This document shows, piece by piece, positions 33,614 through 40,177 of a stretch of DNA of 53,820 nt. The stretch is from an uncultured Bacilli bacterium (lineage in GTDB: Bacteria > Bacillota_I > Bacilli_A > RF39 > UBA660): NCBI GenBank assembly GCA_947581765.1, contig CANPVU010000008.1:1-53820 (forward strand), given 5' to 3'. Under the pieces are notes generated by a model. It searched no databases, was not told where the DNA came from, and worked only from the letters and a program-made list of their open reading frames with translations. How positions within the stretch are numbered: position 1 is the stretch's first letter; the number at the start of each line of letters is the position of its first letter. The position numbers and the translations under genes were made by a program.

Positions 33614-33639
33614 TAAAAAAATCTAGAACAATTTCTAGA
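33614..33639 (-). terminator. Terminator after the radical SAM gene
   Basis: TCTAGAA-ATTG-TTCTAGA stem followed by T7 on the minus strand, right behind the stop at 33643. Confidence 0.9.
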
Positions 33640-33642
33640 CTT

Positions 33643-35037
33643 TTAATCGAAAAAATTCTTATGAATAACAACATCATCTTTAAAAATTTTATCGGATAAA
33701 ATTTTCTTAATTTCTTCCTTTGGTTTATCATCTGATGTGAACATAGAAATATTTTCAAATTCCTCATCAGTAAATGTACTCCAATTTTGAATTTTTGAAA
33801 AATCAGCATGGTCAAAACCTAATCTTTTTACAAGTTTAACATAATCTACCATTTCTTTATAATTTGCTCTTTGTATAACAAACAATAAATTAACCTTCTT
33901 TACTCTTCCTTCCTTACGAGCAATTGATAGATTTTCTAAATTCTTCATTAATTGTTTAAAATTACCACCACATCTTATCTTTTTATATGTTTCTTCACAA
34001 GTAGCATCTACACTAATCATTATTTCAATATTTTTATACTTAGAACATAATTTATCCAAATTACTCTTAGTAAGAAGTGTTCCATTAGTATGAATTATTA
34101 TAGAATCTCTTCTTGTAACTTTAGATGAAAATAACATTTTCCTATAAACATTACTAAAGAAAGTTTCACCTTGACTAGCTATTATAAATTCTTTTGAATC
34201 CATAGCCCAATTAGACTTAGTAATTTTATTTGCTAACATATTAAGGAATTTTAAATGATAACCAGGTTTAACATTTTGAAAATTCTTTCTACAGCTTGGA
34301 CATTTAAGATTACATGAAGTATCAATAGCAACACATACCTCATCTGGAGATTTCCTTTCAACCAAATCAGTAAATCTACTATTTGTTTTTTTAGTACTAC
34401 TAGTCATATACGGACAATCTTTAGTACTACAAAATAAATAAGTTTTATTAATAATAGATAATCTATGTAATCTAGCTAGATTACTATTCCAAACTTGTTT
34501 TGGACTCTTATAAGTTATATTACCAATTTCCTTAGTTGTCCAACCACTACAACATCCATATACATATCCTTTTGGCTGTATTTGTACATACTTAAATGGA
34601 TAATCACATTTAATATTATCTATAGAATCAGTATAAATCATATCACGAAAATACTCTCCATTAGATTTATATACATCATCATGTCTCCATTTTTTTACTT
34701 TTTCATAATAATATTTATATGTATAAAAAGTTAATTTATCTATCTTATCATCTAATAAATAAGCTATGTCCTCTAAATAATAATAATTCTTTTTATATTT
34801 AAGTCCATACTTATTAAATTTATTTGTTATTTTATCACTTTTTCTATCACAAATAATAATAGTATGGCGTTTTAACTTAGAACTGCTTAATTCACTTTCT
34901 TTATAACACTTTTTACCCTTATATTCTTTCTTATTATTTGTAATATAACCTAGTACTTTAAAAGTAGGAAATAAATATTCAAAATCTTCTTGAAATCTCC
35001 CTATTCCATATACTATTACACTTTGATGCTTTCTCAT
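33643..35037 (-). CDS. Radical SAM protein with N-terminal SPASM-like domain
   Basis: A 464-residue protein. Residues 1-90 look like a Rossmann-type domain (VIVYGIGRFQEDFEY, VLGYITNNK). Residues 144-208 contain cysteines in a SPASM-like arrangement (C144, CC162-163 in GYVYGCCSGW, GNITYKSPKQVWNS, C203, C208). Only then comes the radical SAM core, Cys242-x3-Cys246-x2-Cys249 (CNLKCPSC), with FIIASQGE and IMISVDA strands. In the usual order SPASM follows the core, so this is permuted. Substrate unknown. It lies 38 bp after the giant repeat gene, without an intervening terminator, and is likely co-transcribed. Confidence 0.85.
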   Translation of the reverse strand: MRKHQSVIVYGIGRFQEDFEYLFPTFKVLGYITNNKKEYKGKKCYKESELSSSKLKRHTIIICDRKSDKITNKFNKYGLKYKKNYYYLEDIAYLLDDKIDKLTFYTYKYYYEKVKKWRHDDVYKSNGEYFRDMIYTDSIDNIKCDYPFKYVQIQPKGYVYGCCSGWTTKEIGNITYKSPKQVWNSNLARLHRLSIINKTYLFCSTKDCPYMTSSTKKTNSRFTDLVERKSPDEVCVAIDTSCNLKCPSCRKNFQNVKPGYHLKFLNMLANKITKSNWAMDSKEFIIASQGETFFSNVYRKMLFSSKVTRRDSIIIHTNGTLLTKSNLDKLCSKYKNIEIMISVDATCEETYKKIRCGGNFKQLMKNLENLSIARKEGRVKKVNLLFVIQRANYKEMVDYVKLVKRLGFDHADFSKIQNWSTFTDEEFENISMFTSDDKPKEEIKKILSDKIFKDDVVIHKNFFD

Positions 35038-35075
35038 TGAAATACCTCCACATAATATTCTAACATAAATAAATA

Positions 35076-38000
35076 CTATTTTACTATATTATTTAAACTA
35101 TTAATTTTATCTTCTATTAATTGTTGATACTTTGCAACATAATTAAATGCCTCTCTAGTTTTATGATCATTAAATTTTCTATTTTCTTCCATAATTGTAT
35201 AATAAACATTTTCCAATATAACTTTACAATCTTCATAACTAGCATTATCACATAATGATATAACTGAATTAATAAACTCATCTAACTCACTTGTTTTAAA
35301 ATAAATATTTTTACCCATTAAATTATTTATATATCTAGTAATAACTTTATTTATTAGTGTATAGTCATTTTCATTTACTATTTTATAAGTCATATCATTA
35401 ATTTGTTCATGTTCTCTTTTAGCCACCTTAGCTTTATTTATAATAAGTATTGGTACGTTAAAATTTTCTGATGCTTTCTTTGTCATTCTCCATAATTCAC
35501 TACTTTTAATATTATCAATATTTAAACTACAATCTTCATTAATATAATTTCCATCAGCAATAAACAATATATAATTAGGTTGTCTTTTGTATTCAAAATC
35601 ACCACTTAATTTTTTTCTTTCTAAAACCACTTCATTATGATGCCATCTAGTTTCATCCTTTTGTTCTTGAGGAAATAAGAAACGACATGCTTTTGTTTTT
35701 GAAGTATCATACTTTTGATTAAAATTATTAGATACTATATCATCAGGAGATGAAAGTAGTATAGAATTTGGTTCCAACTGTGTAAATACTAAAATCGGAT
35801 AATTTGCTGGTGCTGTTGTTAAATTCTCATTAGTTATATAACTTGTACATATACCATGATTAGTCATAAGTTCTATATTCCATTCCTTTTTAAAATTTTC
35901 AGGCTCTCTATAACTATGATTATAACCACCTAATACATGTATAAGTAAACTTATATCATTTTCTAATTCAAATATATTATCATCTAATTTAACCATAGTA
36001 TTATGTTTAAATACTTCATTATAACTACTTGAAAACTCATTTCTAATTAATCCTTCTAATTGAACAGAATAACTAAAATCAATATTACTTATATCTAAGT
36101 TATTATAAATCTCTACTAAATAATTTATATCATCACATTCAAATAAAAACTTAATATCATATAATTCCTTTTTTAAATTAACATCACTTATTTTATCTAT
36201 AGTCTTTTGTAAATAACAATATCTTTCATATATAAATTTTGCAGTATTAATATTAATATTGTAGTATTTAAGTAATATATTATTTCTTATAAAATCAATA
36301 TCATTAGTTAATTCTAAATTATTAAAATATTCACACTTTTTACTATATATATTTTTTAAATCACTAATAGATGTAATATTATATATATTATTAGATACTA
36401 ATAATACATTTACTAAATTATTAATAAATTCAATATTATTACCTTTTGTTTTTCCTTTTGCAATAACATCTATAAAATTATCAATATTAGTACATTTATC
36501 AATTATATTATTACACATATCATTATATTTATTTTCATATAAACTATCTAATATTCTACTAAGTATATCATTAACATTTATACTTATATCAATACTATAT
36601 AAATAAGTTATACACAATTTAAATATTTTTAGTTTATTATCATTTCTAATTTCAAGTAATTTTCTAACAACTGATTTATCAGGTATTATCCTATTAATAG
36701 TCTCTATACCTAAAAATGAATATTTATCAGATAATATAGCTATATCTAAATTAATAAATACTTCCTTATTCTTACTTTGTAAATAAATTAAATTATCTTT
36801 TAATTTTTTCTTATCACTTATATAACAATCTTTAGATATTTTATCTATTAATGCATCTAATTTTTCACTTTCTATATATTTAGGTATAAATATATCTAAG
36901 GCATTAACAAGTTTAAAGTTAGACGAATTATTTATCATATAGTTAAATAATTCATCATTATTAACTATATTAGCCTTTAAATTATCACTTAAATAATATA
37001 AATTAATTCCCCTTGAAATTACACTTTTAAATAAATTTAAATCTATATCAAAATTTGCTTTATTAATTATATCTGGAATTCCCATTGAAATAGCATTCGA
37101 TATAAACACATAATTATTTAAATTATCTGGAAGTTCAACAAGGTATTTTTTTAAATCTTTTTCAAACTTTATACCTATTTCAATGATATTTTGGTAATCA
37201 ACTTTAAATACTTTTTCAAATTGTTCTTTACTAAAATATTGTATTATATTAGGATTATACCTTACTGCTTTTTCTATTCCACCTAATATATCAACATACT
37301 TAATAAATTTATCTATATCATCTATTATATAATTTTCTTTAAAACTTACTGATATAAGTTCTTTATCCAAGTATTTTTCATCTACAATATCAATAACATT
37401 TGGATAAGTATATATTAAACATAATATATGTTCCTTATCTTGTAAATACTCACTTGGTATAGAATTTATATATTCATCTTTTTTTAAATACATTTTATCA
37501 ATAAATGATAAAAATTCTTTATCTTTTTCACCTTTTTTAAAATAATATTTAAAAACAGAATAATAAAGTGAAATTAAATTATATTTTTCTGCTAATTCTT
37601 CACTAATTTTTACTCTATTTGTTATTAATTTACGAGCTAATTTTTCATCTATTAAAGTTTCATTTATTCTAAGAATACTACTAACTCTTCTAATATCTGC
37701 ACCATATGTTAAATAATCATAATTATTCTTTAAAATATCAAGAGAATAATCATTTATCTCATATCCACAATCTAATATATCATATACTAATGAATCATCT
37801 AGTATATCTCTATCTATATATTTTAAAGCATTATCTAAATATCCTAAATTAACTCTAGCATAATATTTTATATAGTCTGGATTATTTAATATCCTTTTAT
37901 CAGTTGAATCATCAAGAATATACTGACAATCTATTAATTTTTTTATTACTCCATTAGATGAATCATTAATTATATCATCAGGCATATTACTAAAAAATTC

Positions 38001-39839
38001 TTTATCTAAATTATTACCTATATATCCTGTTTGACTTCTAACTTCTATATATTCTTTTAAATAATTAGGTGTATACATTAATTTATTGGTTTCATTTTCA
38101 TAAATATAATCTTTTTTTATAGCTAACATAATAACATCTTCATATGAATATACAATATCATCTGCATTATTTATTAATCTTCCTATATCAAAAGAAGAAC
38201 TTAAATTATTTATTAATTTAATCATATAATTAGGATTATTATATATTACATGATTTATTAATATATTATTAGGATTATATTTCATCCCCATTGAAAGAGC
38301 TAAAGATATAATATTATTAGAATCATTTATAAGTAACTTTTCATCTACTTTATTTAAAATATTTTGTAATAAATAATCATTATCAACCTTTTCTATAGAA
38401 TATTTTATAAATTCTACACATTTAAAAAATAAAGATTCTTTTCTAGCATTACTTAATTTATATCCTTTATCTACTGCTTTATAATATAAGTTCTTATTTT
38501 CAAGTAATACATTTGGATTCATGTTATCTACAATACTACAATTAAACTTATCAAAACTATCAATATATTTTTCTAAGTATATAATATTATCCCTTATTTT
38601 TTCTTTTGCATTAAATATTCTAAATTCTAATCCCATATCTATTAAATCAAAAACAATACCATTTGAAGTATCTAATAATAATTCATCGGATATTTGATTA
38701 AAAAAATAATTTAGAGAAGATGAATTTAAATGTAATAGTGACTCTTTTACATATTCTTTATTTGAAAAAACTGAACTATCAAAGTCACTTAATTGAAATC
38801 CATTACGTAAAGCATTAATTACAAAACCATTACTTGGATCATCAATTATTTTTTTACCTACATATTTTACCCAAAAACGTTTTTCATCATTTATGTGCTT
38901 ATTAAAATAATAATTAACATAATTAATATTATTTTTTATTGCATCGTTACTAGAACTATCTATACTATATCCCATATCTATAAATCTATATACAAGATTA
39001 TTTGACTCATCAGATAAAATACTAGTATCAATAGCATTTACTCTATACATTAGATTAGGATTAGTTTCAAAGATTCTTATATATAAATTAATATCATAAC
39101 TAGCAAGTTTTAAAATGAATTCATTAATATATTTTTCTCTTTTAAAATAAGTATCTACTATATATTCTAATTCTGATTTACTAAAAAAATTAGGATTATT
39201 TTCTAATTCATTTAAAATTAAATTATATAAATAATCATTTTTATTTTCAAATGATTTTAATATGAAATATTTATTATGTGATAAAGGAGTATTATAACCT
39301 AATGGTGTAAAACTATATCCTTTACTTAATATATAATCTATTATTTCATTAGTTAAAACAGATTCATCTAAGTAAGTAGCATTATATATATTTAAATCTA
39401 TTATAGTTTTAGCATACCTAATATCACTTAATATTTTAGGATATTTTAATAATTCATTACCAGTTACTGATGCTGTTTTAAAAATATCTGGTGTAAGGCC
39501 ACCATATTCATATCCTTTATTAATTATTATCTCTTTTTTAGAAATAGAATAGTAAAGTAAATTTTCAATAACTTGTGGACTACTAAATACATAATTAGGA
39601 GTATTCTCATCTACTACATAATATCTATATTTAACATAGTTAGATATTAAATCAAATGAAACTTGTTTTTCACTATTATCAATAATTTGTTTTAATAAAT
39701 CTTTTGAAAACTGATTATTAGAATTATTATATATTAATTCTAATATATACTCTACCTCATTACCTTGTATAAAATCATGTAATTCTTTAGTATTGTATGC
39801 CCTTTTTAATAAATTTATAAACGATTTTTCATCTATCAT
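35076..39839 (-). CDS. Giant helical-repeat protein with distinct C-terminal domain, unknown function
   Basis: A 1587-residue protein, by far the longest here, without signal peptide or membrane segments. Residues about 150-770 hold at least nine divergent copies of a ~40-residue helical unit, pattern 'ILDDSxNxxVxxLIDxGYxIxxxSxxxIxNNPxYIxYYI' (e.g. IINDSSNGVIKKLIDCQYIL; ILDDSLVYDILDCGYEINDY), somewhat like ankyrin-type or DUF4116-like repeats. About 1290-1510 is a different, conserved-looking region (HGICTSYI, ILVFTQLEP, RWHHNEVVLERK, YILFIADGNY, SELWRMTKKA, VPILIINKAKVAKREHEQ) that looks like a catalytic domain of unknown type. A TATAAT at 39868-39863 could be its promoter; the radical SAM gene follows. 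Confidence 0.8.
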   Translation of the reverse strand: MIDEKSFINLLKRAYNTKELHDFIQGNEVEYILELIYNNSNNQFSKDLLKQIIDNSEKQVSFDLISNYVKYRYYVVDENTPNYVFSSPQVIENLLYYSISKKEIIINKGYEYGGLTPDIFKTASVTGNELLKYPKILSDIRYAKTIIDLNIYNATYLDESVLTNEIIDYILSKGYSFTPLGYNTPLSHNKYFILKSFENKNDYLYNLILNELENNPNFFSKSELEYIVDTYFKREKYINEFILKLASYDINLYIRIFETNPNLMYRVNAIDTSILSDESNNLVYRFIDMGYSIDSSSNDAIKNNINYVNYYFNKHINDEKRFWVKYVGKKIIDDPSNGFVINALRNGFQLSDFDSSVFSNKEYVKESLLHLNSSSLNYFFNQISDELLLDTSNGIVFDLIDMGLEFRIFNAKEKIRDNIIYLEKYIDSFDKFNCSIVDNMNPNVLLENKNLYYKAVDKGYKLSNARKESLFFKCVEFIKYSIEKVDNDYLLQNILNKVDEKLLINDSNNIISLALSMGMKYNPNNILINHVIYNNPNYMIKLINNLSSSFDIGRLINNADDIVYSYEDVIMLAIKKDYIYENETNKLMYTPNYLKEYIEVRSQTGYIGNNLDKEFFSNMPDDIINDSSNGVIKKLIDCQYILDDSTDKRILNNPDYIKYYARVNLGYLDNALKYIDRDILDDSLVYDILDCGYEINDYSLDILKNNYDYLTYGADIRRVSSILRINETLIDEKLARKLITNRVKISEELAEKYNLISLYYSVFKYYFKKGEKDKEFLSFIDKMYLKKDEYINSIPSEYLQDKEHILCLIYTYPNVIDIVDEKYLDKELISVSFKENYIIDDIDKFIKYVDILGGIEKAVRYNPNIIQYFSKEQFEKVFKVDYQNIIEIGIKFEKDLKKYLVELPDNLNNYVFISNAISMGIPDIINKANFDIDLNLFKSVISRGINLYYLSDNLKANIVNNDELFNYMINNSSNFKLVNALDIFIPKYIESEKLDALIDKISKDCYISDKKKLKDNLIYLQSKNKEVFINLDIAILSDKYSFLGIETINRIIPDKSVVRKLLEIRNDNKLKIFKLCITYLYSIDISINVNDILSRILDSLYENKYNDMCNNIIDKCTNIDNFIDVIAKGKTKGNNIEFINNLVNVLLVSNNIYNITSISDLKNIYSKKCEYFNNLELTNDIDFIRNNILLKYYNININTAKFIYERYCYLQKTIDKISDVNLKKELYDIKFLFECDDINYLVEIYNNLDISNIDFSYSVQLEGLIRNEFSSSYNEVFKHNTMVKLDDNIFELENDISLLIHVLGGYNHSYREPENFKKEWNIELMTNHGICTSYITNENLTTAPANYPILVFTQLEPNSILLSSPDDIVSNNFNQKYDTSKTKACRFLFPQEQKDETRWHHNEVVLERKKLSGDFEYKRQPNYILFIADGNYINEDCSLNIDNIKSSELWRMTKKASENFNVPILIINKAKVAKREHEQINDMTYKIVNENDYTLINKVITRYINNLMGKNIYFKTSELDEFINSVISLCDNASYEDCKVILENVYYTIMEENRKFNDHKTREAFNYVAKYQQLIEDKINSLNNIVK

Positions 39840-39870
39840 AAAATATCCTACTTTCTAGCAATATTATACC

Positions 39871-39894
39871 AAAAAAAATAGACATAAGTCTATT
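39871..39894 (-). terminator. Terminator of the rplU-prp-rpmA operon
   Basis: AATAGAC-TTAT-GTCTATT stem followed by T-run on the minus strand; overlaps the rpmA stop codon. Confidence 0.9.
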
Positions 39895-40177
39895 TTTCTA
39901 AATAAACGCTAGCTTGTTTTCTATCCTTACCAACACGTTCAAATTTTACATATCCACTAATTTTAGCATACAAAGTATCATCTGATCCAATACCAACATT
40001 TACACCTGGATATATTTTAGTACCTCTTTGACGATATAAAATTGATCCACCTGTTACATATTCTCCATCAGCAGCTTTAGCTCCTAATCTTTTAGATATT
40101 GAATCACGTCCGTTTTTAGTTGAACCTTGACCTTTTTTATGGGCAAATAATTGGATATTTAATGTCATCAATTTCAT
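39890..40177 (-). CDS. rpmA: Ribosomal protein bL27 with Prp-cleavable N-terminus
   Basis: A 95-residue bL27. The mature sequence begins [15 protein letters not shown]; before it stands [11 protein letters not shown], the Firmicutes-type extension removed by the protease Prp (Bacillus/Staphylococcus consensus ...LQFFA). Cleavage would be before the Ala. The N-terminal arm reaches the peptidyl transferase centre, so removal is essential for the ribosome in related species. The prp gene lies directly upstream, as in other Firmicutes. GGAGGTG precedes the ATG. Confidence 0.97.

What the first reader, a model, noticed from the sequence alone, without database searches (positions are those of the whole stretch)
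33643..39839. Giant 1587-residue repeat protein co-encoded with a radical SAM protein
A signal-less giant protein with at least nine ~40-residue helical repeats and a separate C-terminal domain of unknown kind (HGICTSYI, RWHHNEVVLERK, YILFIADGNY) lies 38 bp upstream of a radical SAM gene without terminator between. Large repeat proteins with enzymatic ends often act in conflict or regulation, and a modifying enzyme next to it could be a partner. This is a possible undescribed two-gene system.
Basis: partly seen in the sequence, partly recalled or inferred. Interest (0 to 1): 0.62.

Follow-up and report, generated by a model that had tools for sequence, protein, structure and literature searches.

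The report
Giant repeat protein with ADP-ribosyltransferase-like end
An uncultured, probably gut-living bacterium carries a giant repeat protein whose tail folds like enzymes that tag proteins with ADP-ribose; the same tail is found on large proteins, some of them apparent secreted toxins, in many related bacteria, while the neighbouring radical SAM gene looks like an accidental companion.

Summary
The two genes are real: 1587 aa (35076-39839, -) and a 464-aa SPASM/radical SAM protein (33643-35037, -), 38 bp apart with no terminator-like site between. The repeats are real, but they are eight units of ~57 aa (aa 268-722), not nine of ~40. The C-terminal domain has no Pfam, NCBIfam, PHROG or PADLOC match, yet it belongs to a family in 70 of 386 genomes of the same taxonomic family. 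AlphaFold2 models it well (pLDDT 88, pTM 0.87). Its only structural neighbours in the PDB are the ubiquitin ADP-ribosyltransferase CteC structures (Z 8.3, 3.8 A over 147 residues). Ser1333, Asp1367 and Glu1403 are conserved in >=41 of 46 relatives, with spacing like CteC's S97/D134/E220. In two other genera the same module ends LXG-like proteins inside complete type VII secretion loci. The pairing with the radical SAM gene is not conserved: that protein is in 5 of 386 genomes, not beside such a giant in any other locus examined, and congeners hold other genes at this site. The recurrent partner is instead a tiny downstream gene, absent here. Best reading: a diverged ART-fold effector; target and export route unknown.

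The parts
35076..39839 (-). giant protein, 1587 aa
   Evidence: ORF; no library match (6, 7, 17, 18); GC 19.6% against 24.5% for the window (74)
37677..39038 (-). eight ~57-aa repeats (aa 268-721)
   Evidence: leave-one-out models, 0 of 200 shuffles reach any unit
36021..36815 (-). conserved module before the ART core (aa 1009-1273)
   Evidence: profile of 10 relatives, window excluded, matches at E 7.6e-17 over 250 of 258 positions
35424..36017 (-). ADP-ribosyltransferase-like core (aa 1275-1472)
   Evidence: AF2 pLDDT 88.4, pTM 0.87 (61); Foldseek ranks 1-4 all CteC (66); VIA-align Z 8.2-8.3 over 147-149 residues (67)
35841..35843 (-). Ser1333, proposed counterpart of CteC S97
   Evidence: Ser in 41 of 46 relatives; 32 residues after H1301, as S97 after R65 (CteC residues from PMC10810742)
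35739..35741 (-). Asp1367, proposed counterpart of CteC D134
   Evidence: Asp in 45 of 46 relatives
35631..35633 (-). Glu1403, proposed catalytic Glu (CteC E220), first residue of a strand in the model
   Evidence: Glu in 45 of 46 relatives; strand at core residues 132-136
35937..35939 (-). His1301, at the place of CteC R65
   Evidence: H 25, T 9, N 4, S 3, R 2, Y 2 among 46 relatives
35082..35435 (-). C-terminal helical bundle (aa 1469-1586)
   Evidence: AF2 model
33643..35037 (-). radical SAM protein, 464 aa: N-terminal ~95 aa of uncertain kind, SPASM aa 144-208, Radical_SAM aa 241-402
39863..39895 (-). hairpin with T-run overlapping the rpmA stop codon, then TGGTATAAT (extended -10): the giant gene probably has its own promoter
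   Evidence: read from sequence
33615..33639 (-). hairpin with T-run after the radical SAM gene
   Evidence: read from sequence

Best explanation
The giant protein is an NAD-using ART-fold effector. Its last ~580 residues are a conserved unit (lead-in module, ADP-ribosyltransferase-like core, C-terminal helices) that is mounted on very different N-terminal parts in different bacteria; here on eight ~57-aa repeats. The repeats most likely bind the target or a trigger, and the core binds NAD+ with H1301/S1333/D1367 and uses E1403 to transfer ADP-ribose to that target. Relatives inside T7SS loci indicate that the module is used as a toxin in bacterial conflict. This copy has no export signal and no small partner gene; it is either a cell-resident enzyme (defence or regulation) or exported by an unrecognised route. 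The radical SAM gene is a lineage-specific neighbour. Shown: the family, its conservation, the modelled fold and its nearest solved structure, the T7SS context of two relatives. Inferred: NAD use, catalysis, toxicity, role of the repeats.
For: Core model pLDDT 88.4, pTM 0.87. Foldseek against all PDB: ranks 1-4 are CteC chains. VIA-align: of 157 chains only 7 reach Z 2, and all 5 listed entries are CteC, Z 7.0-8.3, 140-149 residues. The longer model gives CteC Z 7.5 among helical-bundle matches. S1333, D1367, N1402, E1403 and R1408 conserved in 41-45 of 46 relatives, with spacing like CteC's R65/S97/D134/E220 (PMC10810742; 54, 69): 32 against 32, 34 against 37, 36 against 48 once CteC's 38-residue insertion is removed. 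L035 and L112 carry the domain at the C-terminus of LXG-like proteins (shared N-terminus E 5e-19) between WXG100 (39.7 bits, cut-off 27.3), DUF4176 (96.6, cut-off 25) and an FtsK/SpoIIIE EssC-type ATPase (146.9, cut-off 24) (81, 86, 88, 90; Pfam run on the L035 genes). The host genome has its own T7SS-like locus. ART and WXG100 genes co-occur in the family: odds ratio 2.6, P 6e-4, without correction for phylogeny.
Against: Foldseek E-values are weak (0.16 at best). No sequence-profile link to any solved ART. Catalytic residues were matched by spacing and conservation, not by superposition, since coordinates were not at hand. The R65 position is His here and Thr, Asn or Ser in 16 of 46 relatives, unlike a canonical R-S-E enzyme. 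W1399 replaces the usual His of TRHxHNE and V1351 a near-invariant Gly, so this copy could be diverged or weak. The T7SS-located members form one nested clade away from the window's clade (101).
Confidence: 0.55

Rival explanations
1. The core is an ART-fold NAD glycohydrolase: it destroys NAD+ instead of modifying a target.
For: ART-fold toxins that are NAD(P) glycohydrolases are known (PMC13285283, found); the NAD-binding arginine is not conserved in this family (73).
Against: Large N-terminal parts that look like binding scaffolds suggest a specific target; the nearest fold is a protein-modifying transferase (67).
Confidence: 0.2
2. A degenerate or catalytically dead ART-like domain used as a binding module, the protein being a scaffold.
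For: Variable residue at the R65 position (73); window-specific W1399 and V1351; degraded copies exist in this family (G043:C17, and G000:C9 with stops).
Against: S1333, D1367, N1402, E1403 and R1408 are kept in this copy and in nearly all relatives; open 1587-codon frame.
Confidence: 0.15
3. The giant protein and the radical SAM protein form a two-gene modification system.
For: 38-bp spacing, GGAGGT ribosome site, no terminator between, hairpin with T-run after the second gene (99, 100).
Against: The radical SAM protein is in 5 of 386 genomes; loci fetched around its relatives hold tandem copies, GT2 glycosyltransferases or unrelated genes and no ART giant; the ART family has no other radical SAM neighbour.
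Confidence: 0.05
4. Not an ART: another alpha/beta enzyme that resembles CteC by chance.
For: Foldseek E 0.16 (66); Z near 8 is close to what unmatched models reach by chance (note).
Against: Only CteC chains among 157 reach Z 2, independent crystal forms agree (67), and the conserved residues fall at matching spacing (73, 54).
Confidence: 0.2

Closest known systems
CteC, ubiquitin Thr66 mono-ADP-ribosyltransferase effector of Chromobacterium violaceum (PDB 8ux2, 8htc-8htf; PMC10810742)
   Same: core fold (Z up to 8.3 over 147 residues); Ser, Asp and Glu at like spacing
   Different: no detectable sequence similarity; His in place of R65; shorter D-to-E stretch, with no four-helix ubiquitin-binding insertion in the model; C-terminal part of a 1587-aa repeat protein
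LXG-type polymorphic toxins of Bacillota type VII secretion
   Same: relatives L035 and L112 place this domain at the C-terminus of an LXG-like protein in a T7SS locus
   Different: the window protein has no LXG-like N-terminus, no hydrophobic segment and no T7SS gene beside it
SPASM/radical SAM maturases (NCBIfam TIGR04317 73.6 bits against cut-off 380; TIGR04311 65.7 against 400)
   Same: Radical_SAM and SPASM domains; CNLKCPSC (CX3CX2C) motif
   Different: SPASM lies before the radical SAM domain; far below every equivalog cut-off; some homologues in glycosyltransferase clusters

Membership tests
ADP-ribosyltransferase fold (cholera-toxin-like, R-S-E) | mono-ART fold | tested here: met
   VIA-align Z 8.2-8.3, 3.8 A, 147-149 residues to CteC, alone among 157 chains; predicted model, Foldseek E only 0.16
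ADP-ribosyltransferase fold (cholera-toxin-like, R-S-E) | catalytic Glu on beta 5 | tested here: inconclusive
   E1403 is the first residue of a strand and is kept in 45 of 46 relatives, but it was matched to E220 by spacing, not by superposition
ADP-ribosyltransferase fold (cholera-toxin-like, R-S-E) | Arg on beta 1 | tested here: not met
   His1301 here; only 2 of 46 relatives have Arg. So it is not filed as a canonical R-S-E enzyme
ADP-ribosyltransferase fold (cholera-toxin-like, R-S-E) | NAD+ binding and ADP-ribose transfer | not testable with these tools
   needs an assay
CteC family proper | sequence similarity to CteC | tested here: not met
   profiles A1, A3 and A4 do not match any CteC chain at E 10
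[quoted passage not shown]
   D1367 to E1403 is 36 residues with only two short helices in the model
T7SS LXG effector | LXG/WXG-like N-terminal domain | tested here: not met
   no Pfam match; N-termini of L035/L112 match each other but no other ORF of the loci searched
T7SS LXG effector | encoded at a T7SS locus | tested here: not met
   window neighbours are rplU-prp-rpmA and nrdD-nrdG; the genome has a T7SS-like locus on another contig
radical SAM/SPASM RiPP maturase | equivalog score and SPASM after the radical SAM domain | tested here: not met
   all NCBIfam scores below cut-off; SPASM aa 144-208 precedes Radical_SAM aa 241-402
PADLOC defence systems | match to a defence model | tested here: not met
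   no match for either protein at E 10

The most novel reading that the evidence does not exclude
A previously uncatalogued superfamily of giant ART-fold enzymes in uncultured small-genome Bacilli and Clostridia, with swappable N-terminal parts (LXG-like T7SS export domains, diverse repeats) and in places an added C-terminal HD domain, often followed by a tiny, closely coupled partner gene. The window protein would be a non-secreted branch that acts on the cell's own or an invader's molecules.
Probability: 0.35. Interest if true: 0.75.

Novelty: new variant of a known kind. Interest (0 to 1): 0.55.

Why it matters
If right, it assigns an enzyme fold and likely active-site residues to a large, unannotated family of giant proteins in uncultured, largely gut-derived bacteria, and links part of it to type VII secretion. 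It makes a concrete test possible (NAD use, target, immunity partner) for proteins that none of the libraries searched recognises. It also shows that the eye-catching radical SAM neighbour is not the recurrent partner.

Tried and rejected
Library searches of both proteins (Pfam, NCBIfam, PHROGs, PADLOC: 6, 7, 17, 18) gave nothing for the giant. Pfam on twelve members of the domain: only chance matches. PDB sequence profiles: nothing. The search for related loci with the broad alignment failed; a narrower one worked. No relatives in IMG/VR (34) and no convincing match in the viral structure library, so a phage origin is not supported. Papain-like C-H-N protease reading of HGIC/HxHNE: dropped, since Cys1331 is not invariant (36 of 46) and the fold points to ART. 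Radical SAM partner idea: rejected. HD domain: in some relatives only (L054, 29.5 bits over cut-off 22), not in the window protein. First-reader repeat period of 40: rejected in favour of ~57. Repeat model finds no other family member at E 1e-3. A small overlapping ORF after the giant gene, as in relatives: none in the window. MutM of congeners not found in this genome, but the genome is 87% complete. The CteC sequence was not fetched; its residue numbers are from the paper.

Full report
Observation. Upstream lie rplU-prp-rpmA; beyond the pair lie nrdD and nrdG. A hairpin with T-run overlaps the rpmA stop codon and is followed by TGGTATAAT; another hairpin with T-run follows the radical SAM gene; none lies between the two genes. 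So they may be one transcript with its own promoter.

Repeats. Unit starts at aa 268, 325, 381, 438, 496, 556, 616 and 670 give eight repeats of 52-60 aa. Each left-out unit scores 13.2-42.4 bits against a profile of the other seven; the best of 200 shuffles is 9.1 bits or less, so none reaches it. The period is ~57, not ~40. That they are helical was not tested.

The C-terminal domain is a family. No library recognises it. A search of genomes of the same taxonomic family with a 12-sequence profile finds it in 70 of 386 genomes, with a second intact copy and a broken third copy in the host genome. In a phylum-wide sample of 392 genomes only two hits appear, the window genome and one of the same family, but individual relatives occur in MAGs labelled Clostridia and Lachnospiraceae. 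Relatives were not found in IMG/VR at the sensitivity used. Among 46 relatives under 90% identical, S1333 (41), D1367 (45), N1402 (45), E1403 (45), R1408 (44), P1421 (45) and P1463 (43 of 45) are conserved; H1301 is not (H 25, T 9, N 4, S 3, R 2, Y 2).

Fold. AlphaFold2 on the 352-residue tail gave pLDDT 84, pTM 0.84; on the 222-residue core pLDDT 88.4, pTM 0.87. Foldseek with the core finds CteC chains at ranks 1-4, E 0.16-0.62. VIA-align on 157 chains gives Z >= 2 for only 7, and all five listed entries are CteC: 8hte Z 8.3 (3.8 A, 147 residues), 8ux2 Z 8.2 (3.8 A, 149), 8htd 7.3, 8htf 7.1, 8htc 7.0. CteC is a mono-ADP-ribosyltransferase with R65, S97, D134 and E220 at the NAD+ site and a ubiquitin-binding insertion at F157-R194 (PMC10810742). 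Spacing in the window protein is H1301-32-S1333-34-D1367-36-E1403, against R65-32-S97-37-D134-86 (48 without the insertion)-E220. This is agreement by spacing and conservation; a residue-level superposition could not be made. No sequence profile links the families, and the R65 position is His here, so it is not a canonical R-S-E enzyme.

Architectures. The conserved unit is longer than the core: a profile of the ~260 residues before the core, made without the window protein, matches aa 1009-1273 at E 7.6e-17. Around this unit everything varies: total length 296-1771 aa, some members with a C-terminal HD domain (Pfam HD 29.5 bits over cut-off 22 in L054). In G149 (L035) and G372 (L112) the unit ends a protein with a shared LXG-like N-terminus (E 5e-19) and a hydrophobic stretch, encoded between a YukD-like gene, four WXG100-like genes, a DUF4176 gene and an EssC-type ATPase (Pfam was run on the L035 genes, those of L112 were read by likeness). 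These are T7SS loci by the two shared components named in PMC11217815 (EssC and WXG100). The window genome has its own T7SS-like locus on another contig. ART and WXG100 genes co-occur in the family, 32 of 70 against 77 of 316 genomes (odds ratio 2.6, P 6e-4; not corrected for phylogeny). In the tree the T7SS form is one nested clade (support 100/99). The host's second copy falls near it; the window protein falls in another clade with L041, L042, L003, L004, L005 and L016 (fork support 81/90).

Partners. The radical SAM protein is present (E <= 1e-40) in 5 of 386 genomes. Around its relatives are tandem copies (G214), GT2 glycosyltransferases and flippase-like genes (G292, G073; one is an ORF that also holds a GT2 domain) or unrelated genes (G377); no ART giant is among them. 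In congeners G382 and G249 the rpmA-nrdD slot holds a 216-aa gene and mutM. The pair is therefore specific to this genome as far as could be seen. In contrast, 23 of 41 ART genes are followed on the same strand within 60 bp by an ORF under 140 aa, against 29 of 205 other large genes in the same loci (odds ratio 7.8, P 5e-8; related sequences are not independent). Several of these tiny genes are homologous between genomes whose further neighbours differ. The window copy lacks one; the radical SAM gene stands in that place.

Mechanism. Most likely (0.55) an NAD-using ART-fold effector: the repeats select the target or sense a trigger, the core binds NAD+ and E1403 promotes transfer. Shown: family, conservation, modelled fold, nearest structure, T7SS context of two relatives. 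Inferred: NAD use, catalysis, toxicity and the role of the repeats. Main rivals: NAD glycohydrolase, dead ART-like module, chance fold likeness.

Verdict. Novelty: a new variant of a known kind (ART-fold effectors) in new architectures.

Noticed in passing
L041, L042, L044, L028, L052, L053, L104, L106, L036, L099, L046, L102, L049, L051, L035, L112: Tiny genes (49-132 aa), at -60 to +15 bp after the ART gene and homologous within clades, co-travel with it: possible immunity or adaptor proteins.
   Followed up: partly
L035:2681-14406 and L112:1664-13994: Complete-looking T7SS loci with an LXG-like giant carrying the ART-like C-terminus.
   Followed up: yes
L112:4023-9197, near aa 750-870: Second ART-like stretch (LLHFTDLASAEKIM...) resembling DarT-type domains by eye.
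   Followed up: no
L113:3609-4555: Gene before an ART giant contains ILYHGSTKDIDVL, ART-like by eye; no Pfam match.
   Followed up: no
L040:5312-8387 (G043:C17): Tandem ~1.1-kb partial duplications of the ART 3' end, with stops.
   Followed up: no
L124 (G000:C9:3438-3641): Degraded third ART copy with stop codons in the window's own genome.
   Followed up: no
L095:1589-3913: 774-aa ORF that holds a GT2 domain and a relative of the window's radical SAM protein: a fusion in a glycan cluster.
   Followed up: partly
window 33643-35037: SPASM domain placed before the radical SAM domain, the reverse of the usual order.
   Followed up: no
L109 and L110, gene after the ART gene: A 280-295 aa kinase-like gene stands in place of the tiny partner; kinase likeness judged by eye.
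   Followed up: no
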